Assembly (NCBI GenBank): GCA_025024175.1
Contig: QCXZ01000064.1
Location: 61,835,325 to 61,899,324 of the forward strand
Reading direction: 5' to 3'
DNA from: Rhyzopertha dominica
Lineage: Eukaryota > Arthropoda > Insecta > Coleoptera > Bostrichidae
Length of the DNA stretch: 64,000 bases
Of this stretch, positions 37,829 to 59,902 are shown in pieces (position 1 is the first letter of the stretch; each line of letters begins with the position of its first letter). The notes under the pieces are model-generated. The model was given only the letters and a program-made list of their open reading frames with translations. It was not told the origin of the DNA and did no database searches. A program made the position numbers and the translations under genes.

Positions 37829-38866
37829 ATGCTAGCGATAATCATCGAACTCCTGCTAATACTCCAAATCTCATCGAGCGCCAGAATCTTGGGGATCGTC
37901 CCCACACCATCCTACAGTCATCAAATAGTGCATCGAGCCTTGTGGACCGAGCTGTCCCTGCGAGGACATAAAGTCACCGTCATGACCACTGACCCGGTGA
38001 AAAGCTCATCTTTGACGAACTTGACCGAGATAGATCTTCACGAGGCATACGACATCCTCAAGAAGCACGAAAATCCAGAATTTCACGGAAGACCTCTTGG
38101 ACTACGAGATGCTCCACCCGCAAGTACAGGAGCTGAAAAACTCTACATTCGATTTGGTCATGGCGGAGACGGTCTTTCTACCACCCTTCGCGTTCAGTGA
38201 AGTCTTCAATTGCCCCGTCATAGCCATCGCTTCCATCGACGTGATGCAGAGGCTGCACCAGGAGATGGGGAACCCCACAAATCCGGTGACGTATCCCGAC
38301 CAAAATTTGGCGTTCTTCGGGCAGTTGAGTTTTTGGGAGAGGGTGAAGACTTCAAGTTACACGACGATAAATCAGTTGATACACGGCATGAGGGTTTCCT
38401 TGGCCAACAAGCTGGTAAGGAAGTATTTTGGGGACGGACTTCCCTCGATTGATGAGATCTTGCAACGCATGAATTTGATGTTTTTAAACTTGAATCCGGC
38501 TTTGAATGTCGTCAGACCGGTGTCTCCGTCTACGATTTTCATTGGGGGAAGCACACATTTGCAAGATCCTAAGCCGTTACCTCAGGTAGATTTTCTTAAT
38601 CTGAATGAAGGTTTGAAGATTATTTAAACGAATAACTTTTTAGCGTATTAAGGGGATTTTGGATAATGCCACCGAAGGAGTGTTGTACTTTAGTATGGGT
38701 ACTAACGTGAAAAGCAAAGACTTGTCGGTGGAAACCAAGAAAATTTTATTAGAAGTGTTCAAAGAACTACCTTTTACTATTTTGTGGAAGTATGAAGATG
38801 ATAAATTGAAAGGACTGCCTGGGAATGTCAAAATTGAAAAATGGGTGCCTCAGCAGGATGTTTTAA
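37829..38866 (+). pseudogene. UGT cassette C1 (exon 1 frameshifted, exon 2 intact)
   Basis: First 5' half of a UDP-glycosyltransferase, an ER enzyme that joins a sugar from a UDP-sugar to small lipophilic molecules. Exon 1 (37829-38585) encodes a signal peptide, ARILGIVPTPSYSHQ with the presumed catalytic histidine (residue 31), and LSLRGHKVTVMTTDP. Around 38069-38097 about 53 nt present in the sister cassettes are missing, shifting the frame; coding continues from 38097 with LDYEMLHPQVQEL to PSTIFIGGSTHL. The total of 757 nt compares with 819 in C3-C5. The GTAGAT donor follows 38585; a 58-nt intron leads to exon 2 (38644-38866), exactly 223 nt, reading RIKGILDNATEGVLYFSMGT to VPQQDVL, then GTAAGT. 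No exon 3 or 4 follows. The frameshift makes C1 a pseudocassette unless it is an assembly error. Confidence 0.85.
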
Positions 38867-38889
38867 GTAAGTGAAACTAATTAAAATAG

Positions 38890-39895
38890 GTTACTTCAAT
38901 CAGGGCTATAGCTGATTATTCTCGAAAAAATAATTTAAAGTTAAACCCAGAAAAGTGTGCGGCAATGTTGTTCTGTCCAAATCGTTTGCGAGAAAGCATA
39001 TTGACAGATTTTAAAATTAGTATTAATAATCAACCACTGCCTGTTGTTAACGGCGTAAGAAACTTAGGTTTAATATTTGAAAGTGATCTTCGTTTTAAAC
39101 AACATATTGCCGGCATAGTAAGGAAGGCTTATCTAGCCTTAAAACTGCTGTATTGCAACTGATATTTAATAACTTTCAGAATGCGTAAGAAACTTTGTGA
39201 ATCGTTAGTGTTGTCCATCGATAATTACGGTTTCATTGTGTTTTACTCATGTCTGGATAAAATAACTAAGTTAATATTACAGAAAATCCAGAATAGATTC
39301 GTTTATCGCATACCCCGTGATGAAAGAGTGTCCCAAAGAATAGTGGCACTGGGTTGGCTTAGAGTAGATGATAATTATAGGTATAGTTTGTCAGTGTTTT
39401 TCTTTAATATGTTGGTAACCTCCTCACCTCCATACCTTCGAGGCAAGTTTCACTTTAGATCTGATGACATAAATGTTAATGTGAGGAATCTATCTTTACT
39501 ATCAGTTCCTAGATATCGACTACCTTGTTTCGCAGGTCATTTTCGTACAACTGTGTAATTATATACAACAGTCTGCCTGGAAATCTGAAAATGCTTTCGT
39601 TACGCCAATTCCGAAAGCAGTTGAAGAAAATTTTGTTACTTTCGCAGTAATTTATATGCCTAGGTTAGTTTGTTATTGTTATGTGATATAAATATGTTTA
39701 GTATAAGCTACGTAGCTCGTATATATGGATTGTTCGAAAGATTGTTCCATTACTACGTGCTGCAACTACTGCTTGTTTTTGTTTCTATTTGTTATAATTT
39801 GATTGTTGATTATGGCTTGTAGTAATGGAAAAGGTTGAGTTGGGTAGCTTTTGGTTAAACTTCGCCTTAATAAAGACGTATTATTATTATTATTT
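38890..39895 (+). mobile_element. CR1/Jockey-like non-LTR retrotransposon, 5'-truncated
   Basis: The reading begins about 25 bp after the C1 exon 2 donor: LKLNPEKCAAMLFCP, then VVNGVRNLGLIFESDLRFK, then after a frame break LVLSIDNYGFIVF, LQKIQNRFVYRIPRDERVSQ and PPYLRGKFHF. This is the C-terminal part of the reverse-transcriptase protein. It ends in AATAAAGACG and an ATT microsatellite (39880-39895). The tail words match the truncated copy at 1738-1920, and it belongs to the same family as 35470-36990. The copy sits where intron 2 of C1 would be. Confidence 0.8.
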
Positions 39896-42359
39896 ACATG
39901 ATTTTAAACGTTAGATCATTGTAGGGCTGTTCTATTTCAAAAAAATGAAAAAATAAAACCCAACACCGGTGTATTTGTAACTGGAAATTCGTTTGTTCAT
40001 TAAGTATCTTAATATATTTGGTTTTCTAGAATGTTTCAGTATTTCTAAGTATTCTAACAAATTCAGTTTGGTACCTTTATGCAGATGTGTAAAACTCAAG
40101 TTTTTTATTTCGTTTGAATATGTATCGGAACCCTAAACAATGTTTTGCCACAGAACCACGTAATTGATTCTGTCTACATAATGTTTTTAAAAATTGCTCA
40201 TCTCTGTCCTATACATATACACACTGTTACATCCGGAGCAAGTTGATCTGACCTGATTTGACAGGTTCAGCTTTTTTAGCGTAAAAAAATTGATTTCACT
40301 ATTTTATTGTTGAAACATGATGATGGTTTTTGTTAATTCTTGAGATTTGCTACAAAACAAATAAAATTAACCTTATACAAACATGTTAAGTAATAAATAG
40401 TTGGCCAAGGAGGAGGTAACTGTGTCAGTATTATTATATTTTTCTAATTGCAGCAAAGTCATTGCAATAAAAACTTATACTCCGGAATAATTTAAATATC
40501 GAATTTTATCTTTATTATGAACTAACTCGGGTCGTAAGCTACCTACGGTAACGAATGCCAACTTCTTTTGTTTTTGATGTGAAACAAATATGCAATCTCG
40601 CTTCCATTCGGGTATACCTAAATTACTTTTGGATATTAACTACAAGAGAGTCTTGCCATTTTAAACAAAAATGGGTATATTAATAAAGAATTCAAATTCA
40701 AAATGATGGAGATTTTGTTAATTAAATTCAGAATTGAAGGATATGTTAGATAGGGTTAAACCAAATTTAAAGTTATTTCCCAAAGAATCGTTACTACTTT
40801 CTTTCGACGTGAACAATTTTATTTTCATTGATCTACTTCTTTAAAATTCTGATTTAGCTTTACTTCATAAAGACAACTTAGTTTTGTAAACTAAATTTGT
40901 CTTAACGGCAAAAGCAGCAAATTTGTATTTTGCAGTTATATCTTGAAAATGGTCAACCCTGTAATACTATGCATCTTAGTTATTTCTTGTTAATGTTATT
41001 GTTTACGTCTACCGATAGTTTGGTTTGAATTTGCATATGTGCATGTCGTGGAGTTGGAAAACAAAATTATCCTATTGTTATTGTAATAACTCTCCCAATT
41101 CGACAACGTCGTGATGAAATAAATATTTGTTAAACAAATGTAATCGACAATTAACATGTAACATTTATTATAAGGAAATAACATGTAAGTGTTTGGGGGG
41201 TCTTTCACCAAATGCATTGGCTGAGCGAACCTCTCACATGTCATCATTGTTTATGACTTGAAGATGGAAGTGACCATTTCCAAAACGTTGTCAGTATTAA
41301 TTAAATAATCAGAATCTGTTCGTTTCTCAGTTTATATAATTTTCTTCAGTTTTTAATAATTGTTTTTATATTTTTCTCTGTTTAAAACTGATACAATTTG
41401 ATGTAGTAGACAAACACCAATACAAAAATGGTGCATTACCTAGTAAACAAGTGTTCAACTTTGAAAATCCGTTATTATTCTTACTGTATCATTGTTGTTT
41501 TATAAACGACATACTGCAAGGCAAGTCTGCCATTCAGGTGTCGCAAACAGAAGAACAAATAGATATTTCTTAAGTGAAACAATATAATACTTTTGAAATA
41601 TCATGTGATTGTTTTATGAGCTGCTATTTGAACTTTGTGGTGTTATTAATAAGTGTACTCAAAGTAAAAGGGCAATAGGATTATACTTTATGACCGATGT
41701 ACACACTTCAACGCGTTCATCATTTTTTTTACCTCAAATGTCTAGATAAAGCTACCACTTAAACAATTCAAATTCCACAAGATTCAACTTCTAGCTGATT
41801 GACGAAAATATTTAAACGACACGTGTTGTATCTGCCATACTGGACAAAAATGAATACTGTTGCTATGGTCATACTTTGTCTCTGAGCAAACAAAGATTAA
41901 TACTAAGAAAAAATTAATATCTTCAAAACAAGATAACCTAGAGAGATCCGGTTTGAAAAATACAATTCCCATGAAATTTTCTACATTACCGGATAATTTG
42001 ATTTTTATTTAAATAGAACGACATATATATTTTTACCCCGGTCTTCCATTTTCATTAAGGTATGTTAGGATCACTAGTAACATTTCAAATACAAGTTGAC
42101 TCTTTCAGGCCTTTTAGTTTCTAACGTCGCCATCTCAATATGACCTTTAATCTCACTTCCTAACAGCAACCGTCCTATTAGGAAATAGGAAGGACAATTA
42201 TACTCGTATTTTACCGGAGTCGTATAGTTGGGCCAGTCTACCTATCTAATTAGCAAATTAGGAAAGACCTTAATTTATGTGATGTGTGTAACTTATTAAT
42301 GTGATTGCTACGGTTTTTTCTTAGCAAACACGCTTAAAGGAATAAAATAAAACAATTTT
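39896..42359. other. Intergenic/intronic DNA between C1 and C2, no gene seen
   Basis: AT-rich. At 41256-41293 there is a TTGAAGATGGAA..TTTCCAAAACG hairpin-like motif of a kind found in Penelope-type ends; nothing else recognised. No UGT exon 3 or 4 could be found here. Confidence 0.4.
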
Positions 42360-42373
42360 CAAGTTTTAATACA

Positions 42374-42535
42374 AACTTATATTTATACGTTACAATAATA
42401 ACATGTATGTATGTACAGTAAAGTATAAAAATATTTACAAATTTACAAAAATACGAACTTATATTTATACGTAATAACACAATATTAACATACATGTATG
42501 TACAATAAGGTATAAAATATATTTACATATTTGAC
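42374..42535. repeat. Tandem duplication of about 80 bp
   Basis: Two adjacent similar units, each starting AACTTATATTTATACGT and containing an ATGTATGTACA word and a TATAAAATATTTACA-like word. They lie close to the left side of the MULE remnant, so they may be sub-terminal repeats of that element. Confidence 0.6.
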
Positions 42536-42779
42536 GCGTATTTAAATGAAACACTTTTTACAAATGTCAGCCTGTCTATGAGATTTTGTTTGTCGTTATT
42601 AATTTTGACTTCAAGATAATCTTGCTTTAATTTTACAGTACGCCTAACAACTTTTTGGAATTTGTTGGATGTGTTTATTTTAACATAAACTTCACTATGA
42701 AAATTCAACAAACTATCAACAAATTGAAAAATATTTGGATGAGGCGAATAAAAACTTTTATTAAATCTTGAATGAAATT

Positions 42780-43880
42780 ACTCACACGCATTGGTTGTTC
42801 TGGAAGAGGAGGCAGATGAACTTGCCTAAATATTTGGAGTAAATTTGGCATTTTCGCTGATGTAATTGTCCACTAAATAGTCGCAAAACTCTTGAAGTTT
42901 CGAATGTTTTGGCATGATTGGAATTAAATCGAATGCGAATGCGTCACCCACTTCATCACAATCAAGAAACTGAAGTCCAAAACAATATCTTAACATTTTG
43001 CCAACTTCCGTGTGGTTTTTATAATCCTGTGACAGTCCAAGCGAGTGAATTTTTCNATACCATGCCTGTGAAAGATGGAATCGGTATCCACTTACTCTAG
43101 CTTCCTCCCACGTATCCATAATAGCATTGTGGATTGCAGTTTCAAAATCAACACGACACTTTTAGGATAAAATTGTAAGTCACTTTCACTGCACTTCTGA
43201 CACAACATATTCAAACATGTTTGATATGTGGATTGCTTTTTATCCGGAAGCAAACAAAATACCAATGGAACGTAATGTCCATTCTTGTATCCATGAATTA
43301 TAAAGAGTTGTGTAAAAAATTTCGAACAAAAATCAAATGTGCCGTCCATATACACAGTTTCAGTACAACATAAAAAGTCTATTGCTATAAGGAGCAAAAA
43401 TGATGATACCTTGGTCTGGATTATTTGTCAAGACAAATGATTCTTCTTTATGTGTCATAGGTGCCAAAGTGTTTACTGCTTCGAAAACTTCTTTTTGCGT
43501 TTTGGGTAGATTTGGAGTTAACTTCCTCTTGCACATCCATATATTATGCCTTACAAGTTCCATATCGTAAGTCGTTATGTTACTGCTTATGCCAGGGTTA
43601 GACCGAAGTTCCGTGTGCACTAATTTGGCAGGTTTTTCGTGTACATTTTCTAGAGCTTTCCTTTTCACACTGTTGTTGACAATCTGCCTGTGGAGGTTTA
43701 TGTCTTCTTTGTGATTGTGAGATAATTCGGAGTCCAAGATCTCATTTCCAGCCGACGTGTAGATTTTTGCGGGACATTTCGATGTTTTATTTGTACACCT
43801 CCAACGCACAGTTCCGTTTTTCAGCACGTTTGCGATGCAAAACTTGTAGTTATTCACCACCAACAGTGATTGCCCTTTTC
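42780..43880 (-). pseudogene. FLYWCH zinc finger plus MULE transposase pseudogene
   Basis: Reading leftward: an N-terminal FLYWCH finger (YKFCIANVLKNGTVRWRC, then CPAKIYTS and LSHNHKED, giving W-x-C, C, H-x-H). A linker follows with NLPKTQKEVFEAVNTL. After a frameshift near 43390 comes the MULE core TETVYMDGTFDFCSKFFTQL (catalytic aspartate in M-D-G-T-F), then YVPLVFCLLPDKKQSTY. After a second frameshift near 43120 come SGYRFHLSQAWYRK (F-H-x-x-Q-A-x-x-R box) and LQEFCDYLVDNYI. This domain pair is typical of the animal Phantom-type Mutator transposons. Two frameshifts and one ambiguous base (43056) break the protein. It sits between UGT cassettes C1 and C2. Confidence 0.85.
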
Positions 43881-44500
43881 ACTTTGCATGAATACAATGA
43901 ATGTGCGCTAGAAATTTTTGTAAAACTGTTTAATTTGACTTGCGTTTCAGAATTTATAAACTCATTTCAGCAGGTAACCACCCTCTTTAACAAATTATTT
44001 AGGACATTATGGCACAAAATGTTTGCGTTTAAATTACCTACTTTTCTAAGTAGTATCAGGTAGCAGGATCTGATAAGGATTCGTTATCGATAACTATCGG
44101 CGGGAGGTTCATAATCCACCGTCCGCATCCTTCTGGCCCAACTCAATGACAGATTAAAGAATGATAAAGTTTTTGGCCCCAACTATAATGCGCCCTCTCA
44201 ACTACCCTGACATGCAAATCTATTGTCCCAAACTAATAAGTGAGCGCAATAAATGTAGGTAGTCTTGGTGGGTGGACCCTAATATCTGAGGGTTTGTCTT
44301 AACCACTATTAGATCAAAATACGATGAAAATAACCTGTGGAGCTCCGTAGCGGAATTTGAGTTTCGGCTCAACCTACCCTAGGTCCTTAAAAATAAGTGA
44401 AAAATGTATAACTCAAAATGGTGACAGACTAGTAAGAGGGTATACCTATTACACGAAGATCACTCTTAGCAATCTTTCACCTTTTTATTGAAATCACAAA
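43881..44500. other. Region upstream of C2, no gene seen
   Basis: No recognised coding sequence. A CTGGCCCAACT word at about 44131 is the inverse of a word at about 42230 and might be a decayed end pair of the MULE, but the match is short. Confidence 0.35.
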
Positions 44501-44595
44501 TCTTATCAATCTTATACTGTTAAGATAAATACTGTACTAATTAAGATAACCGCAAGTGATAACTAAAAATAGTAGATAAACTTCCAGTTTACACT
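44501..44595 (+). promoter_or_regulatory. GATA-site cluster upstream of UGT cassette C2
   Basis: Five GATA-type sites lie within 80 bp before the ATG: TTATC at 44503-44507, and GATAA at 44524-44528, 44545-44549, 44558-44562 and 44575-44579. The density is higher than expected even in AT-rich DNA. A role in gut or fat-body expression is inference. Confidence 0.45.
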
Positions 44596-45686
44596 ATGAT
44601 TTCAGTAACAGTGTTGGTTCTCACTGCTCTCAATATTGCTGAAACAGCAAGAATATTGGGCGTTGTCCCCACACCGTCTTATAGCCATCAGGTAGCATTT
44701 CGACAGATCTTCGCGGAACTGTCACTTCGTGGCCATCAAGTCACCGTCCTGACAACAGATCCGATGAAAAATGCGTCGTTAACCAACCTGACCGAAATAG
44801 ATTTACAAGGTGCTTACGAGGGCTGGAGGAAGCACGATTTGGCCAGTTTCATGCTTAAGAACGGACACAACCCTCTGACGATGGTTGCGAAGATGGACGT
44901 AGTGTTCAAAGATTTAATGGACTACGAAATTTATCATCCACGAGTGCAGGAGCTGATTCACAACGAGACTTTCGATTTGGTGATGATAGAGATGATGTTT
45001 CTTCACCCTTTTGCTCTCGTAGAAGTCTTTCAGTGTCCTTTCATAGGAATAGTGTCTGTTGATGCGTTGCCCCATTTTCATAAAACCATGGGCAACCCTG
45101 ACCATCCTGTGCTACATCCAAATCAATTTTCTCCAGTTTTTGGAAAGCTAAACTTTCTTGATCGTTTAGTGAGCACGATTATATCCGTCAGTATCCGGTT
45201 ATTGAATTATAGGGATAGTATCAAAGTTACCAGGGAAATAAAGCAATATTTTGGCGAAACTATGCCATATATACCTGAAATACTGGACAAAATTACCTTG
45301 ATGTTTTTGAATTTGAATCCAGCTTTAAATTCTGTTCGTCCGGTGTGTCCTTCTACAATATTAATTGGAGGAAGTACACATTTAGAGGCAACAAAACCAC
45401 TGCCCGCGGTACTGAACAGTTTGATATGAGCAAAAGTCGATTTTGTTACCCTTAGCTTTGCAGAAGATAAAAGAGACACTGGATAACGCAACGAATGGTG
45501 TAGTATACTTCAGCCTAGGTAGCAATGCAAAAAGCAAGGATTTTCCATCGGAAACAAAGACGCTATTATTGGACGTAATGAGAGAATTACCGTACACGAC
45601 TCTTTGGAAGTATGAGGAAGATGCGTTGCCAGGACAACCAGAGAATGTTAAAATCGCGAAATGGCTACCACAGCAGGATGTTCTTA
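44596..45686 (+). CDS. UGT cassette C2 (exons 1 and 2)
   Basis: Intact 5' half of a UDP-glycosyltransferase. Exon 1 (44596-45408, 271 codons): hydrophobic signal peptide, then ARILGVVPTPSYSHQ (presumed catalytic histidine 31), LSLRGHQVTVLTTDP, two N-glycosylation sequons in NASLTNLT, and the end PSTILIGGSTHLEATKPLPA. A GTACTG donor and a 55-nt intron ending TTGCAG follow. Exon 2 (45464-45686, 223 nt): KIKETLDNATNGVVYFSLGS to KIAKWLPQQDVL, closing with the GTAAGT donor in phase 1. The start codon is the only one giving a signal peptide. No UDP-sugar-binding exon follows before C3; the nearest on this strand is at 55387. Read through, the frame stops 27 nt after the donor. Confidence 0.9.
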
Positions 45687-46738
45687 GTAAGTTGATGTAC
45701 TTATTATTTGTGTAAATTGGAGTGACCTAATTCTACAACAAATCGAAATAGTACTACAAAAAATTACTGTAATCTACAAGCCCGCTCCACAGTTTAGATG
45801 AAAACATTGCCACAGCGTGATATCTACGAGGTCCTATGCTTTTAATTCAATTTGAAGCATTACATTGCCAAAGATTGACCAGTTGAACACATTTTTAATT
45901 AAATATAGCAATGGGAGTCGCGCGGCACTCCTAAAAAAATAACAAGTTAACGTGAACTAGAAATTGATACCCCTAGAACTTGATTGAAATTGCTACACAA
46001 AACAACCAAAGATTAAAAAAAAATCTCCAACAGCTACAAAAGCGGATAAATGGAACTTGATAGTAATGATCACTAGAAACAAATATAAAAAGAAAATGAC
46101 TTAATGAAAATCTATTGCTTCTTAATTAAAAAAAATTGTAGACTGATCCATTTTTCGAAGTATTTTTGTTGTTGTAATCGATCAGGTATTCCTTAAAAAA
46201 TTCTTCCTCCAAATTAAATCAGTGATTTTTAAATGTTCCTTACCTTTATTTTTTTTTTAATTTAAACCAACCTTAACTTTTACATCAAAATAAGTGATAC
46301 TGATAGAAAATTTAAATTTTGTTTATTAAATAATTATAGGAACATTGTTATTGAAAGCAGTTTAGAGACCTACACCTAGTTCTTTTTCGAAAGCATTTAA
46401 TGACATAGGTATTTAAAGAAGTCGTTTAAAAACGAATGAAAAATGATGGTGTAAAGAAAAATAAGAAATAACTTTGTCTATACAAGTGGAATTACTAAAA
46501 TTTTGAAAGAAAGGTAAGAAGAATATTGGTAACGTAAAATTAATAAAGCTGAATTTGAAATCTTATTAATTTCTGTTTCATAACTGAAATTTATAGAAGC
46601 ACGTAAGGGATTTATAAAAGTAAGAAAATTGCTTACATCGTGCGAATTACCTGTAAAAAGACACCTTAAATAGCTAAAGATATCTGTAATAAAACTAACT
46701 ATGCATCTCTGTTGTAGACTCCTCAGTATATTCATATA
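45687..46738. other. Between C2 and the mariner, no gene seen
   Basis: AT-rich, about 1 kb. I looked for a UGT exon 3 (ITQGG, ADQQYN) and exon 4 (transmembrane and lysine tail) and saw none. Confidence 0.45.
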
Positions 46739-48066
46739 CGAGGCATGTTTTTTAAGTAAGTACCGTTTTGCGATTCCGCCACCGCAGCACTACGGTCGGC
46801 GTTCCGTGCATGCGCGCCGGTTACCTACATCTCTTGTCTACGTACTGACGCCATTACAGTTTGATTCTTCATTGTATACGTTGTTTACTGAGTGTTTAAG
46901 ATGCCTCCGACAATCGTGAGTCCCGCCGATTGTGAAGTACGGGCTGTTATACGATTTCTTAGTGCTAAAGGCGTAAAACCGATCGATATTCATCGTGAGA
47001 TCTGTGAAGTTTACGGACAAAACATTATGAGTGATGGAATGGTAAGGAAATGGGTGAGAGCATTTAAAGATGGCCGNACAAATGTGCATGATGAAGAACG
47101 GAGTGGGCGTCCTTCGGTCGTTAATGAAGATTTGGTGCAGAAAGTGAACGAAACGGTGAGAGAAAACAGACGCTTTACAATTTCATCATTGTGCGACTGC
47201 TTTCCTCAATATTCTCGTAGTGTTTTGTATCGCATTGTGACCGAGAACTTGAATTACCGAAAATTGTGTTCACGTTGAGTTCCGAAAATGTTGAAGGATT
47301 TGCACAAAACCCAACGTTTAGGCAGTGCAATGACTTTCCTTGAGCGGTACCACAATGAAGGTGAAGATTTTTTAGACCAAATTGTTACTGGTGACGAAAC
47401 ATGAGTGGCCTACGTCACACCAGAATCGAAACAACAATCCATGGAATGGCTCGACATTCATCATCACCCAAAAAAGTGAAGTTTAAGCAAACAATTTCTG
47501 CCCGGAAAATCATGTGCACAGTTTTTTGGGACAGAAAGGGAGCATTGCTAGTGAAGTTTCTGCCTCGTAATGAGACAATCAATGCAGCGTCTTATTGTAA
47601 GACACTGAACAATCTGCGTCGTGCAATCCAGAACAAAAGACGTGGCAAGTAAGGGTATCGTTTTGCTGCATGACAATGCCCATCCACATGTGGCTAATCA
47701 GACCAAAGATCTCATCAAATCTTTTAAATGGGAAACTCTAGATCATCCTCCATACAGCCCTGATCTGGCGCCCAGCGACTACCATTTGTTCCTGCACTTG
47801 AAGGAACACCTGGGTGGTCAGCGTCTTCAAGACGATAACGAAGTCGAAACATTTGTGATACAGTGGTTAACAAGTCAGGCGGCAGAATTTTATGAGGAGG
47901 GTATTCAAAAACTGGTGCCACGTTATGACAAGTGCCTCAATATTCACGGAAATTATGTAGAAAAGTAGATTAAGGTACAGGCTTTCATGTAAGATAAAAT
48001 TATTGCGATATCTTTGCACGTCTTTTTTTAATTCCAAAACGGTACTTACTTAAAAAACATGCCTCG
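46739..48066 (+). mobile_element. DD34D mariner, copy A
   Basis: The ends are perfect or near-perfect 31-bp inverted repeats starting CGAGGCATGTTTTTTAAGTA, flanked by TA on both sides (46737-46738, 48067-48068). Length 1,328 bp. A second copy in opposite orientation is at 58621-59902. The two agree closely over their full length apart from a deletion in copy B and scattered changes, so both are fairly recent. Confidence 0.95.
46901..47991 (+). pseudogene. Mariner transposase, copy A
   Basis: Begins MPPTIVSPADCEVRAVIRFL. Two helix-turn-helix units follow (KGVKPIDIHREICEVYGQ; FTISSLCDCFPQYSRSVLYR) with a GRPSV hook between them. Catalytic residues: VTGDET (first aspartate), VLLHDNAHPHVANQ (second), SPDLAPSDYHLF (third), the classic DD34D. 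The protein is broken by TGA where tryptophan is expected at 47276-47278 and in G-D-E-T-W at 47401-47403, a 4-nt deletion near 47648, and TAG for lysine near the C-terminus. One ambiguous base at 47077. Copy B is intact at all four points but has other damage. Confidence 0.92.
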
Positions 48067-48660
48067 TACATAGACTTGAAACAGTCAAACTAGATTTCTT
48101 AAATATATTAGCTATAAATCCATCGAATTATATGCCACCGAAAATATATCAACAATAATGCTACATTATAATACACTTCCACTCGTTTAACGTATATACA
48201 TTTCTAAAATTATATTCATATATAAGGTACTTAACAATCAGCTAGATTGACCAAGTTGTTCGACATTTCAATTATTTTTGCAGCTACTTTTTTAGATTGC
48301 TAAGACAGCTTTTTCGATTTATATACAAATTTGCTGATATTGACTTTTTCTTACCAATTTGAACACAATATTTTAAAAAAGAGCTAAAGATTTACACTTC
48401 ACAATTATAATTGTTGGATTCTGACCTAGTTAGTACGCTGCATATTATGTTTAAGCCTTGACCTTGTTTGTGCTCCATTATCAGATAAATAAATAATTAA
48501 ATACAACTCGTCTACCAGATCTTTTTTGGCAGTTATCTAGTACATTATACCTATTTATCCTTTTACTCTCAAAACACGAAATCTACTCCGCTTATCGCTG
48601 CAAGATAAGTATTCTACACAGCTGAAATGATTCAGCAGTATAAATCCATCAGTTTTCGCG
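48067..48660. promoter_or_regulatory. Upstream region of UGT cassette C3
   Basis: AT-rich DNA after the mariner. The last 110 bp hold TTATC at 48555-48559 and 48592-48596 and GATAA at 48604-48608. No gene was seen. Confidence 0.3.
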
Positions 48661-49758
48661 ATGATCATTGTGACAGTGCTGCTTTTTTCGGTCCTCAGAA
48701 TCTGTGATGCGGCGAGAATTTTGGGCATAATTCCAACACCTTCCTACAGCCATCAGGTTGTATACCGACCAATATTCACTGAACTGTCACTACGTGGTCA
48801 TCAAGTTACCGTTCTGACCACGGATCCACTAAAAAATGCATCTCTGACGAACTTGACCGAAATAGATTTACACGGGGCGTACGACATTTGGAGAAAACAT
48901 GATATCATCAACTACATCGCCGAGAATGAGCGCAATCCATTTAAGATAATAGAGAAGTACAACCAAATGTCGAAGGATATCATGGATTACGAAATATACC
49001 ACCCGGAAGTGCAAGAACTGGTTCAAAACAGGAGCGACAGTTTTGATTTGATCGTGGTGGAGATGATGTTCTTTCAACCGTTCGGCTTCACACAAATCTT
49101 CAAGTGTCCTTTCATAGGGATAATGTCGATGGAAACCATGTCACACTTTCACAGCATCGTGGGTAATCCTGACCATCCAATTGCGAATCCAAATCCCTTT
49201 ATGTCCGGGATAGGAAATATGAACTTTTTCGAACGTTTGGCTAGTGTTGCTATGTCGACGATTTTGCTGATTCAGTCTTATCAGCTAAGTGATACGGCGA
49301 CTAGAGAAATAAGAGAATACTTCGGACAACATACTCCTCGCTTCCCAGAAATAGTCAACAAAATGGAGTTGATGCTTTTGAATGTGAATCCTGTTTTGCA
49401 TATCAAACGTCCTGTATCTCCCGCTACAATACTTTTTGGGGGAGCTACGCATTTGGAGGCCCCAAAACCGTTACCTGCGGTACACAATTAGCTTCTATTT
49501 CCAGAGATCGTTTTTGCAGTTATTTACTATTGTAGGATATACAAGTGATACTAGNTAATGCTACTGATGGAGCAGTTTACTTTAGCATGGGTAGTAACGC
49601 AAAAAGCAAAGATTTTCCGAAAGAAACAAAAGAAACANTGCTACAAGCTTTCAAGGAGCTACCATATACGATTCTTTGGAANTACGAGGATGATGAACTA
49701 CCTGGGAGGTCAGATAATGTGAAAATAGCAAAGTGGTTGCCACAGCAGGACGTTCTCC
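48661..49758 (+). CDS. UGT cassette C3 (exons 1 and 2)
   Basis: Exon 1 (48661-49479, 273 codons): signal peptide MIIVTVLLFSVLRICDA, then ARILGIIPTPSYSHQ with histidine 31, LSLRGHQVTVLTTDP, NASLTNLTEIDL, MDYEIYHPEVQELVQ, and the end GGATHLEAPKPLPA. Donor GTACAC, 56-nt intron. Exon 2 (49536-49758, 223 nt): DIQVIL, then NATDGAVYFSMGSNAKSKDF, ending KIAKWLPQQDVL. The final base before the donor is C rather than A, but splicing to exon 3 gives CGG instead of AGG, arginine either way. Three ambiguous bases (49555, 49637, 49682) lie in exon 2; none forces a stop. No 3' exons follow before C4, which starts 1.2 kb further on. Confidence 0.88.
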
Positions 49759-49829
49759 GTAAGTTATAACTACAGTCTCCACTAGAACAAATTGAAGATG
49801 GTTAAGAAATCCGGTTATACCGAAAGTAA

Positions 49830-50240
49830 ATTTCATCAATGGTTAATTCCTTATGATAAATATTAAAAAGCAAAGGCACGACAGTTTCTTGGGGCACTCC
49901 TATTTTCACTTTCTAACATTCCATTTATTTTTACGTATTGTTGCCTATCTTTTGGAGAGTTTTCAATAAGTTTTAAAGAAATGCCACTAATTCCACATTT
50001 TTATTAATAAATCATGCGATACTGTGTGTGCTAAGTGTAGGAAGACTGCAATGCTTTGCTTACCACTACCTATAAATTTGTTACAATTTCTTTAGTAAGT
50101 TGGTACATTGCATCTACTGAGCTTGTCTTGTTTCTGAAACCGTAGTATGTTATGTTTTGCAAGATGATTTGCTAGAGGTTTTTTTAAGCATTTTTGAAAA
50201 AGTTTTTTAATTGGTTTCTATATCGTCTATACTCATCTTC
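49830..50240 (-). pseudogene. Non-LTR reverse-transcriptase fragment
   Basis: On the minus strand, in shifting frames: YGFRNKTSSVDAMYQLTKEI, AVFLHLAHTVSHDLLIKMW (a decayed F-L-D-L-A-K-A-F-D-T-V-S-H box), SGISLKLIENSPKDRQQYVK and a decayed V-P-Q-G-T box followed by LLFNIYH-like residues. The catalytic Y-A-D-D is not reached. It fills most of the gap between cassettes C3 and C4 and is a different lineage from the plus-strand non-LTR family at 38890-39895. Confidence 0.65.
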
Positions 50241-50975
50241 TTCTACTTTATTAAACGGCTGATTTGCCATACTCTTTTTCATTTTGTCTCGTATTCACAT
50301 TGATTTTATTATTCCTTCTGTTATCTATGGTCTTAGTGTTTTACTGACTTTCTCCGTTTTCAATGTTGTTTTCGCTTGACTGCTGTACAATTTTTTTTTA
50401 CTATTTCAACTAATTTGTTATTATTTATTCTTGTATGCTTTCTGTCACTGGAGGATTCTTTACGATGATTTTTATTTCGTGGCTATATGTGATAAAGCTG
50501 TGGATATCTTCGAACTAGCTATACCAAATATTGCATCGTTGAATAGCTAAAATCGCCTAGTTTATGATTCCATAGGCAGCTGAAGTTTGCATTTGAAGGG
50601 GCTGTCCGAGGGACTGTCTCATAAGTAAACAGACCAAATCAAGTTTAAAAGGGACCAAAATTTGTCGATACCTCCCGGAACATTTGGGGCGTTGTCCTTC
50701 TTTTCGATAAATTCGATTTCTTCAGAGCGCAAAAAGTTCGTAACTTCAGATGTATAAATAATGGCATGTTGCCATGTCTTTATCGTAAATGAAGTGTTTT
50801 TATTTTACAAGTCAGCACATTTATGCAATTTAGAAAGTGATTTAATCGTGTATGATTAGATACTTTGAACGTCTGCAAAACGTGAAACAATCTTATCAAG
50901 TTCAAACCACAGGTGCAAGATAACTTTAATTAGTATTTTACGCAATCGAAAAGTTTTAGCCCAACAGTTTTCGCG
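50241..50975. promoter_or_regulatory. Upstream region of UGT cassette C4
   Basis: No coding sequence. TTATC at 50893-50897 and GATAA at 50919-50923 lie 50 to 80 bp before the ATG. The last 30 bp share AACAGTTTTCGCG with the equivalent position before C3 (there ATCAGTTTTCGCG), showing the duplication took in the 5' untranslated region. Confidence 0.4.
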
Positions 50976-52074
50976 ATGATCGCCGTGACAGTGCTACTTT
51001 TATCTGCCCTTAGAATGGCTACGGCAGCGAGAATTCTGGGCATAGTTGCAGTGCCATCCTACAGCCACCAAGTTGCTTTTCGACCCATATTTACTGAACT
51101 ATCGCTTCGTGGTCATCAAGTTACCGTTCTGACGACAGATCCGATGAAAAATGCATCTCTAACGAATTTGACCGAGATAAATTTGCATGGAGCTTACGAT
51201 ATTTGGAGGGAACACGATATCGTCAACTATATGGCAAAACATCAAAACAATCCATTTAAGATGATGGAAAAATTCAACCAGTTGACGAAAGATATCATGG
51301 ATTACGAAGTATACCACCCAGAAGTGCAAAAACTGATTCAAAACCGAAACAACAGTTTCGATTTGATCATGGTGGAGATGATGTTTCTTCATCCACTCGC
51401 ATTTAGCGAAGTCTTCCGTTGCCCATACATTGGAATCATATCCATGGACACAACCTATATTTTCCACAACATATTGGGTAATCCCGCTCACCCCGTTATC
51501 CATCCAAATCCATTTATGTTCGGAGTGGGGAAAATGAACTTTTGGGAGCGCTTGGCGAGCTCTGTTATGTCAGTGATTTTCCGAATTCAGTATCATGGAC
51601 TGAGCGATAAAACAACCAGGGAAATAAAGGAATATTTCGGAGAATCGACGCCTTCTTTTCCAGAAATATTGAACAAAGTCGAAATGTTGTTTTTGAGCTT
51701 GAATCCCGTTTTGCATAACAGACGTCCTGTATCGCCAGCCACGATACTTTTTGGCGGTGGCACGCACTTGGAGGCCCCAAAACCGTTACCTGCGGTACAC
51801 CGATAGCTTCTAGTTCCTAAGATAGTTTTTTTAAGTGATTTACTATTGCAGGATATACGAGCGATACTAGATAATGCTACGGATGGAGCAGTTTATTTTA
51901 GCATGGGAAGTAACGCAAAAAGCAAAGACTTTCCGAAAGAAACAAAAGAAATATTGCTGGAAGCATTCGAGGAGTTACCGTATACTATTCTTTGGAAGTA
52001 TGAGGATGATGAGTTACCTGGGAGGCCAGATAATGTCAAGATAGCAAAGTGGTTGCCACAGCAGGATGTTCTTA
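50976..52074 (+). CDS. UGT cassette C4 (exons 1 and 2)
   Basis: Fully open, no ambiguous bases. Exon 1 (50976-51794, 273 codons): signal peptide ending near A-T-A-A, then ARILGIVAVPSYSHQ (A-V replaces the P-T of the other copies just before the histidine), LSLRGHQVTVLTTDP, MDYEVYHPEVQKLIQ, MVEMMFLHPLAFSEVF, end GGGTHLEAPKPLPA. Donor GTACAC, 57-nt intron with acceptor ATTGCAG. Exon 2 (51852-52074, 223 nt): DIRAILDNATDGAVYFSMGS to KIAKWLPQQDVL, donor GTAAGT. Closest to C3 in sequence. Joined to 55387-55606 and 55655-55940 it gives a 515-residue UGT, the normal size. C5 starts only 0.9 kb downstream and the gap has no 3' exons, so C4 cannot be a complete gene by itself. Confidence 0.93.
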
Positions 52075-52966
52075 GTAAGTCGAAGTTGCAAATATGACGA
52101 CTATTAGGAGTTTTCGAAAATAAATAATTGTCTAGTCGCTTTTCGGTTTCATCGGCCTACAAATTCTTTCTAATAATGATTAAAGTTATGCCAGCATGTT
52201 TAATATAAAAATATCTATAACCTACCTAGCAGTTTATTTTATTNTACGCTGTACTACAGGTGAANACCCAATTAAAAAACAGGAAAAGTATATGAATTAT
52301 CTACCTTAGCAGAGTAATATACATACAATAGCATAAGTACATCATAAGACAGGTAATATTATTACCCTTGATGCAACGAAAATCAGAAGAAAAATTAGAA
52401 AAACGAACATCCTAAGTCAAGTAATACTTTTTTATATCCTTAATGCTACAAGAAAAAATATAAATCTTAGCTATCTACTCTAGAGTATTAGTTCGAAGAG
52501 TCAAAATGCAAAACGTATCATAACTCCTGGAAACCTGGACCCTAATAATAAGCATATGTAACAAGCATTGACAATTTGTCTTATTGTTGACAATCCCCTG
52601 AGCAGAAAAATATTGACGTCCTACATCCAGACTAGAGAAACCATACCTATCCAATAATTGTTCATGTTCAATGCCAATAGGTGGATATGCATTATATCAA
52701 TTCGGAAACTTACATATTTGAGAAGCCGTCTGTTTAACAAATAGAAATCGCTTAGATAAAAACATTACGAGCATGCAGGTGTACGTTTTCATATCTTAAG
52801 CTTTTACAATAACGCAAGAGATTAAAAAATGATTACTTAATATTTCACATTATTGTGGAATAATCTATTTTATCGTTGTTTACCTATCTCCTAGCTAGAT
52901 GATATGTTGTATTCCACACAATCGAAATGAGTCGGTAGTTTACACTCAGCAGTTTTACCTAGTGCA
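52075..52966. other. Gap between C4 and C5, upstream region of C5
   Basis: AT-rich with two ambiguous bases (52244, 52265). No UGT exon 3 or 4, and no transposon recognised. A TTATC (52870-52874) lies about 95 bp before the C5 ATG. This is the shortest inter-cassette gap and so the clearest evidence that the cassette lacks private 3' exons. Confidence 0.5.
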
Positions 52967-54064
52967 ATGTTCGTCCTCACAGTGTCGTTTTTGTGTGCGC
53001 TTAGAATTGCTTCGCCGGCGAGAATTCTAGGCATAGTTCCAACACCATCATATAGCCATCAGATAGTCTTTCGGTCCTTATTCGCTGAACTGTCGCTTCG
53101 TGGTCATCAAGTTACAGTCCTTACAACGGACCCCATGAACAATGCGTCTCTAACTAACCTGAATGAAATAGACTTGCATGATGCATACCATATTTGGAGG
53201 AAACACGATATCGTCAATTTCATAGCTGAAAACCAGCACAATCCGTTCAGTATGATGGAAAAATTTGATGAATTAACGAACGAACTGATGGATTACGAAA
53301 TGTACCACCCAGACGTGCAAGAACTGATACGAAATAAGAACGTCACTTTCGATTTAGTGATGGTTGAGATGTTGTTCTGGCACGCGTTTGCTTTCGCCGA
53401 GATATATGACTGCCCTTACATAGGAATATTGTCTATCGACACAACTGCTCCATTTCACAGTATAATGGGGAATCCAGAGCATCCAGTTTTACACCCCAAC
53501 CCGTTCACGAATGCGGTTGGAAAGATGGATTTTTGGGAGCGCTTCCAAAGCACTCTGATGACTGTGATCTATCAGGTGCAATATTACTCTGAGGCCGATA
53601 AAGTAACTAGAAAAATGAGGGAATATTTCGGTGACTCTATCCCTGCTGTCCAGAATATAATCGACAAAATAACGGTCATGTTTTTGAATGTGAATCCCAC
53701 TCTGAATTCAGTTCGGCCAGTCTCTCCATCTACAGTATTTTTTGGAGGAGCTACCCATTTAGAAGCGCCAAAGCGATTGCCTGCGGTATAACAAACAATT
53801 CGATGGTTAAAAGGAATTTTTTTTTCATTTGCTATTTACAGAACATACAAGAGATATTAGACAACGCTACTAATGGAGTAGTTTATTTTAGTATGGGCAG
53901 CAACGCCCAAAGTAAAGATTTCCCGGAGAAAACTAAAGAAACATTGCTGCAAACCTTCGACGATTTACCTTATACGTTTCTTTGGAAGTACGAAGAAGAC
54001 GAGCTACATGGGAGACCTGATAATGTGAAAATAGCAAAGTGGTTACCACAGCAGGATATTCTTA
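52967..54064 (+). CDS. UGT cassette C5 (exons 1 and 2), adjacent to the shared 3' exons
   Basis: Exon 1 (52967-53785, 273 codons): signal peptide MFVLTVSFLCALRIASP, ARILGIVPTPSYSHQ with histidine 31, LSLRGHQVTVLTTDP, NASLTNLNEIDL (second sequon lost), MDYEMYHPDVQELIRN, MVEMLFWHAFAFAEIY, end GGATHLEAPKRLPA. Donor GTATAA, 56-nt intron. Exon 2 (53842-54064, 223 nt): NIQEILDNATNGVVYFSMGS to KIAKWLPQQDIL, donor GTAAGT. The next acceptor for this reading is at 55386, so C5 plus exons 3 and 4 forms a conventional four-exon UGT gene of 515 residues with a 1.3-kb intron 2. It can be expressed without any unusual splicing. Confidence 0.94.
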
Positions 54065-55386
54065 GTAAGTTCGTACGACCAAAACTTAGCAGTGGATGCA
54101 ATATGGCATTTTCCAATAAATGAAGTGAAATGCTTAAACTGGTTCATTGTTTAAAACTACATTCCATTATCAGTAAGTTTAATCTGTAATTTATCATGTG
54201 GTAGCGTATTTTTATGGCTACTACATGATAAAAATAATCTAGGATGACATGAAATTGATTGAAAGATGTTTGAGCTGCATTAGTGACTACAGAAGCTATG
54301 AAAGTTTTATTCTTTGACATATATACAAAATGCTCAATATAATAAGCATCTTTCTTCATTGTGCTTATTAATCTAGTACTCTTTACCTTTTTTAAAGGAT
54401 CGCTTCTTATCAATCAATAGATTTATGGTTTCTGTTAAGTAATGAAAGTTACATTCTATGTTTCATACACTGTCTGGAATATGCAAAGAGCATAGACAGG
54501 ACGAACTTTTTAAGGCGTTAAAGGGTTGCAAGAATTCCAATGTGGATAACATTTGCTAATTATAGACCAGTTTCTCTCCTTTGAAATTTTTTGAAAATAT
54601 TTGAACCTTTGTTACTTATATCAAAGGCTATACGATAGTGTTAAATGCAGAATTTATTCGTCGATAACTACTAATTTAGCTTATTTTAGTCAATGAGTAA
54701 TGGAAGTTGTGGGCGATAGAGAACAGGTAGATATCATATATATCATATAATTGATTATTATGTACTATTGAGTAAGATATAACGGTATAGTTTTTCCACT
54801 TCACTCATAAGTTTGTTTTCGTCTTATTTAGAAAATCGACAGCTTAGCTTTAGGTATAGGAAGACGTTTCCAAATCATATGTGGCTACCTCCGGCGTGCC
54901 TCAAGGGTAAAATCTTGGCCCGCTGCTGTTTTTATTATTTGGCACCCATTANGTAAATATACATTAAACTAATTGNGTCTACTAAGATATGATTTTTTAA
55001 ATTTCTTTCGTTTACTTTCGATTGTAAACACCCTCCTAGGGTATTTTGATTCTTTTTATTATACTTCCTGTAAAAATTTAGCACTTTTTTTCAAAAATGA
55101 ATAGGAACCCAACACAGCTATCAGAGCTTTGAGTAAACTACTTATTTTTTTGTACCGGCCATAGCAGGACATCGATATAACCCAATAAATATAAGAAGAT
55201 ATCGCATTGCTTTTCCAACACAAGCAAGAATTTTTGACAGGACTGGAGCCCTCCGTCTACGACTACTACTACGCATATTTTGTTAGTTGTTTTACAGACG
55301 ACATGTCATTGGAATACACAGTTGAAGACCTTGCGAGAACAAAACATCCCCACTTCGTTCGCTTGCTAACCCCCTTTTTGTTTCAG
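54065..55386 (+). other. UGT intron before the shared exons; contains a decayed non-LTR fragment
   Basis: About 54490-54960 holds remnants on the plus strand: a N-Y-R-P-V-S-L-like segment, then ATSGVPQG and LGPLLFLLF in decayed form, the reverse-transcriptase boxes of a non-LTR element. The intron ends with a pyrimidine-rich tract (CCCCCTTTTTGTTTCAG) before exon 3. Ambiguous bases at 54952 and 54976. The 88-codon frame across 55207-55470 runs into exon 3 in the wrong frame and is not real. Confidence 0.6.
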
Positions 55387-55940
55387 GGCATCCAAATGTC
55401 AAAGTGTTTATCACCCAAGGGGGAGCTCAATCAACAGAAGAAGCTATTTACTCCCACGTTCCACNGGTAGGCATGCCGTTCTTCGCCGATCAACAATACA
55501 ACGTCAAATCGTTCGTCATGCGAGGTTTCGGTCTATCAGTTGATCGCAATGCTTTGGACAAAGATGAACTGAAGAGAGTCATCTTGGAAGTCGCAACGAA
55601 CCCTAAGTAAACCAAGTGTTGATGTTTCTTCACCTGTTAAACCTGTTGTTTTAGGTATAAGAACAACATGATCACTGCGGCTAAGAGATCTTTGGATCAG
55701 CCAATGTCTGGTTTGGAAAAGGCAGTCTGGTGGACGGAGTATGTGTTGAGGCATAAAGATACTAAGCACTTGAGGGCAACTGCTGCTAAACTGTCGATAA
55801 TAGAGTATTATTTGCTTGATGTTATAGGATTTGTTTTGGTAGTTGCTATTGTGGCGATCTATTTAGTATACAGAATAGCAAAAGTCGTTTTCTCCGTAGC
55901 AACATCGAGCACGAAGAAGAAGAAACAGAAGAAGCAATGA
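55387..55940 (+). CDS. UGT shared 3' exons 3 and 4 (UDP-sugar site, membrane anchor)
   Basis: Exon 3 (55387-55606, 220 nt) starts with GG completing an arginine codon, then HPNVKVFITQGGAQSTEEAI, YSHVP, VGMPFFADQQYN and FGLSVDRNALDKDELKRVIL. This is the second half of the UGT signature; the first half (W-L-P-Q-Q-D) is in exon 2, so neither half binds UDP-sugar alone. Donor GTAAAC, 48-nt intron, acceptor GTTTTAG. Exon 4 (55655-55940): YKNNMITAAKRSLDQPMSGL, EKAVWWTEYVLRHK, a single membrane helix (about VIGFVLVVAIVAIYLVYRI), and a lysine-rich cytosolic tail ending KQKKQ, which fits a K-x-K-x-x ER-retrieval signal. Stop TGA 55938-55940; AATAAA at 55957-55962. One ambiguous base at 55465 (usually leucine). 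It is the only such exon pair in the window, downstream of five cassettes. Confidence 0.95.
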
Positions 55941-55994: not shown

Positions 55995-56310
55995 CATTAC
56001 CTTGAATGGTATGGAAGGTGTGCTTTTTTTAAATGTGCTCTGTTTCAAGACTGTACTGAGCTTAGATGTGCAGAATTTTGTATAACGTCCCTTATTTTTA
56101 TAAAGACCGTAAAATTTGGATGTAAAAGTATCTTGCCTGGGTTTGAAGATCGACTTCGTAATTTCGGTAATAACCAAGGTTTATTAGAAGTGGGAATTTC
56201 TTTTTACGCATTTGTCAAATGTTTCTTTTTATGTTGCCCTTTTCTAATTTGTGAATTTTTCAAAAGGTTTAGTTTTAATTATTTTTTGCAATATAATATT
56301 TTGATGTTTT
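55995..56310 (-). mobile_element. Penelope-like element fragment, 3' end
   Basis: Read with 10991-11180 and the reverse of 11740-11990, this shares a run of words in the same order: AGATGTGCAGAATTTTG, then GTAAAATTTGGATGTAAAA in place of the Penelope version, GAAGATCGACTTCGTAATTTCGG-like, GTGGGAATTTC and AAAAGGTTTAGTTTT. It is thus a diverged minus-strand copy of the same Penelope 3' region. It begins about 35 bp after the UGT polyadenylation signal. Confidence 0.65.
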
Positions 56311-58620: not shown

Positions 58621-59902
58621 CGAGGCATGTTTTTTAAGTAAGTACCGTTTTGGAATTAAAAAAAGACGTGCAAAGATATCGCAATAATTTTATCTTACAT
58701 AAAAGCCTGTACCTTAATCTTCTTTTCTACATAATTTCCATGAATATTGAGGCACTTGTCATAACGTGGCACCAGTTTTTGAATACCCTCCTCATAAAAT
58801 TCTGCCGCCTGACTTGTTAACCACTGTATCACAAATGTTTCGACTTCGTTATCGTCTTGAAGACGCTGACCACCCAGGTGTTTCTTCAAGTGCAGGAACA
58901 AATGGTAGTCGCTGGGCGCCAGATCAGGGCTGTATGGAGGATGATCTAGAGTTTCCCATTTAAAAGATTTGATGAGATCTTTGGTCCGATTAGCCACATG
59001 TGGACGGGCATTGTCATGCAGCAAAACGATACCCTTACTCAACTTGCCATGTCTTTTGTTCTGGATTGCACGACGCAGATTGTTCAATGTCTTACAATAA
59101 AACGCTGCATTGATTGTCTCATTACGAGGCAGAAACTCCACTAGCAATACTCCTTTTCTGTCCCAAAAAATTGTGCACATGATTTTCCGGGCAGAAATTG
59201 TTTGCTTAAACTTCACTTTTTTGGGTGATGATGAATGTCGCCATTCCATGGATTATTGTTTCGATTCTGGTGTGACGTAGGCCACCCATGTTTCGTCACC
59301 AGTAACAATTTGGTCTAAAAAATCTTCACCTTCATTGTGGTACCGCTCAACATTTTCGGAACCCAACGTGAACACAATTTCCGGTAATTCAAGTTCTCGG
59401 TCACAATGCGATACAAAACACTATGAGAATATTGAGGAAAGCAGTCGCACAATGATGAAATTGTAAAGCGTCTGTTTTCTCTCACCTTTTCGTTCACTTT
59501 CTGCACCAAATCTTCATTAACGACCGAAGGACGCCCATTCCGTTTTTCATTATGCACATTTGTGCGGCCATCTTTAAATGCTCTCACCCATTTCCTTACC
59601 ATTCCATCACTCATAATGTTTTGTCCGTAAACTTCACAGATCTCACGATGAATATCGATCGGTTTTACGCCTTTAGCACTATGNAATCGTATAACAGACC
59701 GTACTTCACAATTGGCGGGACTCACGATTGTCGGAGGCATCTTAAACACTCAGTAAACAACGTATACAATGAAGAATCAAACTGTAATGGCGTCAGTGCG
59801 TAGACAAGAGATGTAGGTAACCAGCGCGCATGCGCGGAACCCCGACCGCAGCGCTGTGGCGGCGGAATCGCAAAACGGTACTTACTTAAAAAACATGCCT
59901 CG
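58621..59902 (-). mobile_element. DD34D mariner, copy B (inverted relative to copy A)
   Basis: The ends match copy A (CGAGGCATGTTTTTTAAGTA and its reverse), with flanking TA at 58619-58620 and 59903-59904. Length 1,282 bp, 46 bp shorter than copy A, mainly because of an internal deletion of about 49 bp near 59350. The copies point toward each other across 10.55 kb that contain UGT cassettes C3-C5 and the shared exons. Confidence 0.95.
58695..59740 (-). pseudogene. Mariner transposase, copy B
   Basis: Starts MPPTIVSPANCEV at 59740 and keeps the helix-turn-helix half through NYRKLCSRWVPKML. Near 59350 a 49-nt segment present in copy A is missing (a TTG triplet marks both deletion edges), shifting the frame to a stop. 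The catalytic half resumes as KKVKFKQTISARKIMCTIFW, KGIVLLHDNARPHVANR (second aspartate), SPDLAPSDYHLF (third) and ends QAFM. An extra stop lies just upstream of the catalytic frame (around 59250). It keeps the two tryptophans and the four nucleotides lost in copy A. One ambiguous base at 59684. Confidence 0.92.

What the first reader, a model, noticed from the sequence alone, without database searches (positions are those of the whole stretch)
37829..55940. Five UGT 5' cassettes feed a single pair of 3' exons
Five tandem two-exon cassettes (starts 37829, 44596, 48661, 50976, 52967) encode the signal peptide, aglycone half and the first half of the UGT signature. Only one copy of the UDP-sugar and membrane-anchor exons exists (55387-55940). 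Every cassette ends in the same phase-1 GTAAGT donor and four of five are open. This looks like a UGT1A-style locus in which one sugar-binding/anchor module is shared by different substrate-binding modules. Variable-first-exon UGT loci are known in mammals and, I believe, reported in some insects; a two-exon variable cassette seems unusual. The rival view is 5'-only duplicates that lost their 3' halves.
Basis: partly seen in the sequence, partly recalled or inferred. Interest (0 to 1): 0.92.

Follow-up and report, generated by a model that had tools for sequence, protein, structure and literature searches.

The report
Beetle UGT locus with shared tail
A beetle detoxification-enzyme locus carries five alternative front ends, four of them intact, and only one back end, so it most likely makes several enzymes by splicing different fronts onto the same tail, as the human UGT1A locus does, but with a two-exon front unit that differs from the shared-tail beetle relatives examined.

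Summary
Five tandem two-exon 5' units of a UDP-glycosyltransferase (UGT) lie upstream of a single copy of exons 3 and 4. C2-C5 join in frame to 513-515 aa proteins; C1 is frameshifted. All five units end in GTAAGT, phase 1.

A UGT1A-style locus is the best explanation. The four open units show purifying selection over large synonymous divergence. DNA similarity stops 6-14 nt past the donor. WGATAR sites cluster before the ATGs: 16 found, about 2.7 expected. Joining one exon 2 to a later exon 2 shifts frame. The main rival, dead 5' halves, would need repeated recent clean 3' losses. No RNA was available, so the splicing is inferred.

The kind is known. Among 230 homologues fetched from capped lists, 46 pairs (14 sets by my grouping) share identical C-terminal tails, some named as isoforms up to X7. 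A paper passage reports exon 1 variants of a moth UGT46A. No set starts its shared tail at exon 2|3; one unverified firefly gene model has a two-exon unit. The two-exon cassette, carrying the first 74 residues of the donor domain, is the new variant.

The parts
37829..38585 (+). Cassette C1 exon 1, frameshifted (757 nt against 819), probable pseudo-unit
38644..38866 (+). C1 exon 2, open, GTAAGT donor
44396..44595 (+). Presumed C2 promoter: five WGATAR sites in 200 nt (C1, C3, C4, C5 have 4, 4, 2, 1 in the same stretch before their ATG)
44596..45408 (+). C2 exon 1: signal peptide and aglycone-binding domain (271 aa)
45464..45686 (+). C2 exon 2: first 74 aa of donor domain, GTAAGT phase-1 donor
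48661..49479 (+). C3 exon 1 (273 aa)
49536..49758 (+). C3 exon 2, GTAAGT donor; split codon CGG still Arg
50976..51794 (+). C4 exon 1 (273 aa)
51852..52074 (+). C4 exon 2, GTAAGT donor
52967..53785 (+). C5 exon 1 (273 aa)
53842..54064 (+). C5 exon 2, GTAAGT donor
55366..55386 (+). Acceptor of shared exon 3: CTAAC branch-site match at -21, 16/20 pyrimidines
55387..55606 (+). Single shared exon 3: phosphate/sugar part of the donor site
55655..55940 (+). Single shared exon 4: end of donor domain, membrane anchor, lysine-rich tail, stop

Best explanation
One beetle UGT gene with alternative 5' units. Inferred: each of C2-C5 is transcribed from its own promoter just upstream of its ATG (GATA-type sites suggest midgut or fat-body expression; that link is recalled); the 55-58-nt intron 1 is removed inside the unit; the exon 2 donor then skips any downstream units and joins the shared exon 3 acceptor. 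Shown: sequences, frames, phases, splice-site matches and selection. Each product pairs its own aglycone domain plus the first 74 residues of the donor domain with one common phosphate/sugar-binding part and membrane anchor, giving four or more enzymes. C1 is a decayed fifth unit.
For: Single exon 3/4 and five 5' units. C2-C5 are open and in frame. pN/pS is 0.29-0.38 for exon 1 (6 pairs) and 0.10-0.21 for exon 2 (6 pairs of C2-C5), all upper 95% limits below 0.5; exon 1 dS runs from 0.94 to saturation. Neutral simulation: at 0.47 substitutions/site 0 of 2000 ORFs stay open in each of four units, at 0.1 it is 73-83 of 2000. DNA similarity between units ends 6-14 nt past the donor while the donor hexamer is 6/6 in five of five. 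Split codon N|GG is Arg in all five although C3 uses CGG. WGATAR: 16 sites in 5 x 200 nt, background 0.54 per 200 nt, 0 of 20,000 resamples reach it; AGATAA is first of 2078 6-mers. Exon 3 has the only CTAAC-type branch match of six acceptors. Exon 2 to later exon 2 joins stop 8-11 codons on, in 6 of 6 C2-C5 combinations. Units form one clade against 135 homologues, support 1.0. Shared-tail relatives: 46 pairs, 14 sets by my grouping; one firefly model reads exon 1-2-1-2-3-4.
Against: No RNA, TSS or second assembly; the own-genome search did not complete. Unlike UGT1A, downstream units offer exon 2 acceptors that an upstream transcript must ignore. Acceptor strength is only partial support: C5 exon 2 also has 16/20 pyrimidines, and exon 4, presumably used, lacks a strict branch match. 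AATAAA/ATTAAA motifs lie in every spacer. C1 is broken. Exon 2 is no more conserved between units than in ordinary UGT pairs of like exon 1 identity, so no co-adaptation to the shared module is seen. The GATA motif was noticed by eye before testing, C5 has one site within 200 nt, and the first 200 nt after the C3 and C5 donors hold 2 and 3 sites. An Iso-Seq study of another beetle reported no alternative splicing in its UGT transcripts (PMC7990184, passage).
Confidence: 0.82

Rival explanations
1. Ordinary C5 gene plus upstream 5'-only duplicates that lost, or never had, private 3' halves and are non-functional.
For: C1 is frameshifted. Transposon-like ORFs lie in the C1-C2 and C2-C3 spacers.
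Against: C2-C4 are open and constrained; neutral simulation makes prolonged decay very unlikely. Recent loss would need three independent clean deletions; no exon 3/4 remnant is seen in the window (next best E 0.74). Donor hexamers are kept while +7 to +46 is 28% identical on average (range 18-45%).
Confidence: 0.1
2. C2-C4 make truncated proteins by reading on into intron 2 and using nearby poly(A) sites, perhaps as partners or inhibitors of the full C5 enzyme.
For: Read-through adds only a few residues before a stop and AATAAA/ATTAAA motifs follow each unit. Truncated UGT33F28 variants without activity of their own are reported in Spodoptera (PMC9209448, passages).
Against: Does not explain conserved GTAAGT, phase 1 and the Arg split codon in all units; read-through tails are not conserved between units.
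Confidence: 0.05
3. Assembly artefact: private exons 3/4 were collapsed or dropped.
For: 20 single Ns in the window; no second assembly was examined.
Against: No runs of N. Spacers near the units hardly align: within 600 nt upstream and 800 nt downstream only a 48-nt C3/C5 and a 19-nt C1/C3 match appear at E up to 0.01, so they are not collapsed copies.
Confidence: 0.03

Closest known systems
Vertebrate UGT1A cluster (and zebrafish Ugt1/Ugt2a/Ugt2b clusters)
   Same: Tandem variable 5' units, single downstream constant set, promoter per unit with a conserved upstream motif, some dead units (PMC1885805 and PMC2819257, passages).
   Different: There the variable part is one large exon and the constant exons encode the donor domain; here the variable unit has two exons and includes the first 74 residues of the donor domain, so downstream exon 2 acceptors must be bypassed.
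Beetle UGT genes annotated with alternative 5' ends (Diabrotica undecimpunctata UGT5-like, names up to X7; Harmonia axyridis UGT4-like, names up to X7; Onthophagus taurus X1/X2; Coccinella septempunctata X1/X3/X4)
   Same: UGTs with identical C-terminal tails and different N-termini (six fetched proteins each for the first two).
   Different: By my grouping of 46 pairs into 14 sets, the tail begins at the exon 1|2 position in 8, inside exon 1 in 5, inside exon 2 in 1 and at exon 2|3 in 0.
Helicoverpa armigera UGT46A3/UGT46A4
   Same: Insect UGT variants differing only in exon 1, attributed to alternative splicing (statement in PMC8351448, passage).
   Different: Single variable exon, two variants.
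Beetle GR and OR loci with private N-terminal and shared C-terminal exons
   Same: Same exon logic; one Rhyzopertha OR locus is proposed to share only terminal exons D and E, so multi-exon variable units occur in models, there unconfirmed by transcriptome (PMC8956072; PMC6720082; passages).
   Different: Chemoreceptors, not enzymes.
Aquatica leii RN001_014766 (P0004)
   Same: Gene model reads exon 1-2-1-2-3-4: a two-exon 5' unit ahead of a full UGT.
   Different: About 41% identical; looks like an automatic model fusion and is unverified.

Membership tests
UGT superfamily (Pfam PF00201) | UDPGT domain over whole protein | tested here: met
   C4-joined protein 261.5 bits against cut-off 19.5, residues 27-509
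UGT superfamily (Pfam PF00201) | Catalytic His and Asp in the N-terminal domain (recalled: H35/D151 of UGT2B7) | tested here: met
   SYSHQ and FDL present in C2-C5; the residue assignment is recalled
UGT superfamily (Pfam PF00201) | UGT signature pattern | tested here: inconclusive
UGT1A-type variable/constant cluster | Tandem similar 5' units and one set of constant exons on the same strand | tested here: met
UGT1A-type variable/constant cluster | Same-phase donor for every unit, in frame with the constant exons | tested here: met
   5 of 5 GTAAGT; C2-C5 in frame through exon 4; C1 is out of frame already in its exon 1
UGT1A-type variable/constant cluster | Own promoter for each unit | tested here: inconclusive
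   GATA-type sites in 5 of 5; no TSS data
UGT1A-type variable/constant cluster | Variable part is a single exon | tested here: not met
   Two exons per unit
UGT1A-type variable/constant cluster | Constant exons encode the whole donor-binding domain | tested here: not met
   UGT2B7 donor-domain structure 2o6l aligns from residue 267, six before the exon 1|2 boundary; exon 2 (74 aa) is in the variable unit
UGT1A-type variable/constant cluster | Each unit is seen spliced to the constant exons in RNA | not testable with these tools
   No RNA data available

The most novel reading that the evidence does not exclude
The two-exon cassettes allow two-level mixing: exon 1 of an upstream unit can also join exon 2 of a downstream unit (phase 0 to phase 0, open in 6 of 6 C2-C5 combinations), so one locus could make up to ten enzymes from four exon 1s and four exon 2s on one tail, while phase blocks the harmful exon 2 to exon 2 joins.
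Probability: 0.1. Interest if true: 0.72.

Novelty: new variant of a known kind. Interest (0 to 1): 0.5.

Why it matters
If RNA confirms it, this is a UGT1A-like locus in a beetle with a variable unit one exon longer than in vertebrates, and it raises a clear splicing question: how do upstream transcripts ignore the exon 2 acceptors of downstream units? It also warns that UGT counts from gene models can mislead, since such loci may be fused, split or called pseudogenes, and that removing exon 3 or 4 would be expected to take out several detoxification enzymes at once.

Tried and rejected
Own-genome search for UGT domains: same request eight times, never answered, so other UGT loci of this genome are unknown. 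Test whether exon 2 is unusually conserved because it must fit one shared module: not supported (unit pairs 72-92% against 74 +/- 8% in 96 homologue pairs of like exon 1 identity). Private 3' remnants: none detected in the window. Alignment of flanks: within 600 nt upstream and 800 nt downstream only a 48-nt C3/C5 upstream match and a 19-nt C1/C3 downstream match. Long homologues as evidence: 6 of 153 read exon 1-2-3-4 twice and are fusions of two full or partial UGTs; 3 of 153 read exon 1-1-2-3-4; only P0004 has the two-exon unit. Structure prediction was not run: the spliced product is not contiguous in the window and sequence mapping onto UGT2B7 seemed enough. Species not identified; only Coleoptera is claimed.

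Literature: ten searches were answered and one was malformed. In their listings and in the passages I opened, nothing described a two-exon variable UGT unit. That is no proof of absence; Ahn 2012, for one, was met only as a citation and was not read.

Full report
What is there. The window holds five tandem, same-strand, two-exon 5' units of a UGT and one downstream exon 3-exon 4 pair. Exon 1 is 813-819 nt in C2-C5 and 757 nt in C1; exon 2 is 223 nt in all five; exons 3 and 4 are 220 and 286 nt. Intron 1 is 55-58 nt, phase 0. Intron 2 is phase 1 and would run 1,322 nt (C5), 3,312 (C4), 5,628 (C3), 9,700 (C2) and 16,520 nt (C1). Joined to exons 3+4, C2-C5 give open proteins of 513-515 aa; C1 does not. 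tblastn of exon translations (C2-C5 exons 1 and 2, exons 3 and 4) against the 64 kb at E up to 10 finds the five units and one exon 3/4; the next best exon 3/4 hit is E 0.74. The C4 product matches PF00201 over residues 27-509.

What organism. The nearest homologues are mainly beetle UGTs (full-length best: 49% identity to Ignelater luminosus P0008). The species is not identified. The four open units form one clade (support 1.0 on exon 1, 0.99 on exon 2) against 135 full-length homologues, so they are an expansion private to this lineage among those sampled. The four-exon plan with a long first exon resembles UGT352/321/328 of Anoplophora (PMC5105290, figure legend; it says 'ca. 810 amino acids', which I take to mean bases).

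Are the 5'-only units alive? Nei-Gojobori pN/pS is 0.29-0.38 for exon 1 (6 pairs) and 0.10-0.21 for exon 2 (6 pairs of C2-C5), every bootstrap upper limit under 0.5. Synonymous divergence is large: dS 0.94 to saturation for exon 1, 0.47 and up for exon 2. In a neutral simulation at 0.47 substitutions per site, 0 of 2000 ORFs stayed open for each of C2-C5; at 0.25, 0-4 of 2000; at 0.1, 73-83 of 2000. So if private 3' exons were lost, it was recent, clean and at least three times. These ratios cannot exclude that the units were whole genes for most of their history. DNA similarity between units stops 6-14 nt past the exon 2 donor and starts close to the ATG. Sequence from +7 to +46 is 28% identical on average (range 18-45%), yet GTAAGT is intact five of five. 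The split codon is Arg in all five, although C3 uses C instead of A; read through, the residue would be Ser in four and Arg in C3. C1 has a net frameshift in exon 1, but its two open parts and exon 2 still show pN/pS 0.20-0.54, so the damage is young relative to its divergence, or an assembly error.

Promoters. In the 200 nt before the five ATGs there are 4, 5, 4, 2 and 1 WGATAR sites; the window background is 0.54 per 200 nt and 0 of 20,000 resamples reach the total of 16 (background windows overlap). The next three upstream bins hold 1, 4 and 3, the three bins after the donors 5, 4 and 2, and the 200 nt before exon 3 none. I noticed the motif by eye first, so I also ranked 6-mers: AGATAA is first of 2078 (10 seen, 1.1 expected, Poisson P 3e-7, in 4 of 5 units). 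GATA factors drive midgut and fat-body genes in insects (recalled). This points to one promoter per unit, as vertebrate Ugt1 exons each carry a conserved upstream motif (PMC1885805, passages). No TSS data exist here.

Splicing logic. The exon 2 donors match GTAAGT 6/6; the exon 1 donors match 3-4/6. Of six acceptors (five exon 2, one exon 3) only exon 3 has a strict CTAAC-type branch match, at -21, with 16/20 pyrimidines; exon 2 acceptors have 11-16/20, C5 equalling exon 3, and exon 4 also lacks a strict match. So the asymmetry is suggestive only. Joining a unit's exon 2 to a later unit's exon 2 shifts the frame and stops 8-11 codons on in 6 of 6 C2-C5 cases; joining exon 1 to a later exon 2 stays open in 6 of 6. 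My inference: the short intron 1 is removed by intron definition inside the unit, and the strong exon 2 donor then pairs with the shared acceptor. UGT1A does not face this problem, because its single first exons carry no acceptor (inference from its described structure).

Where the protein is cut. The human UGT2B7 donor-domain structure 2o6l aligns from query residue 267, six before the end of exon 1. Exon 1 is therefore the aglycone half. Exon 2 adds the first 74 residues of the donor half, including the Trp and Gln of KWxPQ (recalled as the uracil contacts W356/Q359 in UGT2B7). Exon 3 holds positions recalled as phosphate and sugar contacts (H374, here Gln; E382; D398; Q399), exon 4 the anchor. 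Hence the acceptor half and part of the nucleotide site vary, while the sugar-facing part is shared. Exon 2 is not unusually conserved between units compared with ordinary UGT pairs.

What is known. Vertebrate UGT1 and zebrafish clusters have single variable first exons and shared constant exons (PMC1885805, PMC2819257; passages). In insects, Helicoverpa UGT46A3/46A4 are said to differ only in exon 1 (PMC8351448, passage). Among 230 homologues from three searches, each of which listed only its best 120, 46 pairs share an identical C-terminal tail of at least 60 aa. I group them by species and name into 14 sets; some are named as isoforms of one gene (Diabrotica undecimpunctata and Harmonia, names up to X7, six proteins fetched each). 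The tail starts at exon 1|2 in 8 sets, inside exon 1 in 5, inside exon 2 in 1 (Anoplophora), and at exon 2|3 in none. Isoform names rest on database annotation, which I did not verify. Of the 153 proteins, one, P0004 of the firefly Aquatica leii, is modelled as exon 1-2-1-2-3-4, a possible second case of the two-exon unit. Against: a flea-beetle Iso-Seq study reported no alternative splicing in its UGT transcripts (PMC7990184, passage), and in Drosophila only two UGT genes have minor variants (PMC8010143, passage). Shared C-terminal exons are also described for beetle chemoreceptors (PMC8956072, PMC6720082; passages).

Verdict. The general idea is not new; the two-exon cassette and its acceptor-skipping problem are. 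No RNA evidence was available, so the central splicing claim stays inferred.

Noticed in passing
46736-48070 (+) and 58617-59905 (-): Two mariner-type transposon copies, 93% identical, both with broken reading frames; the first sits in the C2-C3 spacer.
   Followed up: partly
43360-43878 (-): FLYWCH zinc-finger ORF, probably part of a transposon, in the C1-C2 spacer.
   Followed up: no
38890-39558 (+): ORFs resembling a non-LTR retrotransposon fragment (my impression; no Pfam match) starting about 24 nt after the C1 exon 2 donor; it may further disable C1.
   Followed up: partly
48661-49758 and 50976-52074: C3 and C4 are more alike in the 3' part (intron 1 79% identical, exon 2 92% at protein level) than elsewhere, while their flanks hardly align; possible gene conversion.
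   Followed up: partly
10891-11174, 11792-12071, 56054-56354: An unnamed dispersed repeat: an inverted pair, 94% identical, and a diverged copy just behind exon 4.
   Followed up: no
P0092, P0141, P0146 (Photinus pyralis): P0092 shares its first 266 residues with P0141 and its last 230 with P0146: either a chimeric gene model or exon mixing across a UGT locus.
   Followed up: no
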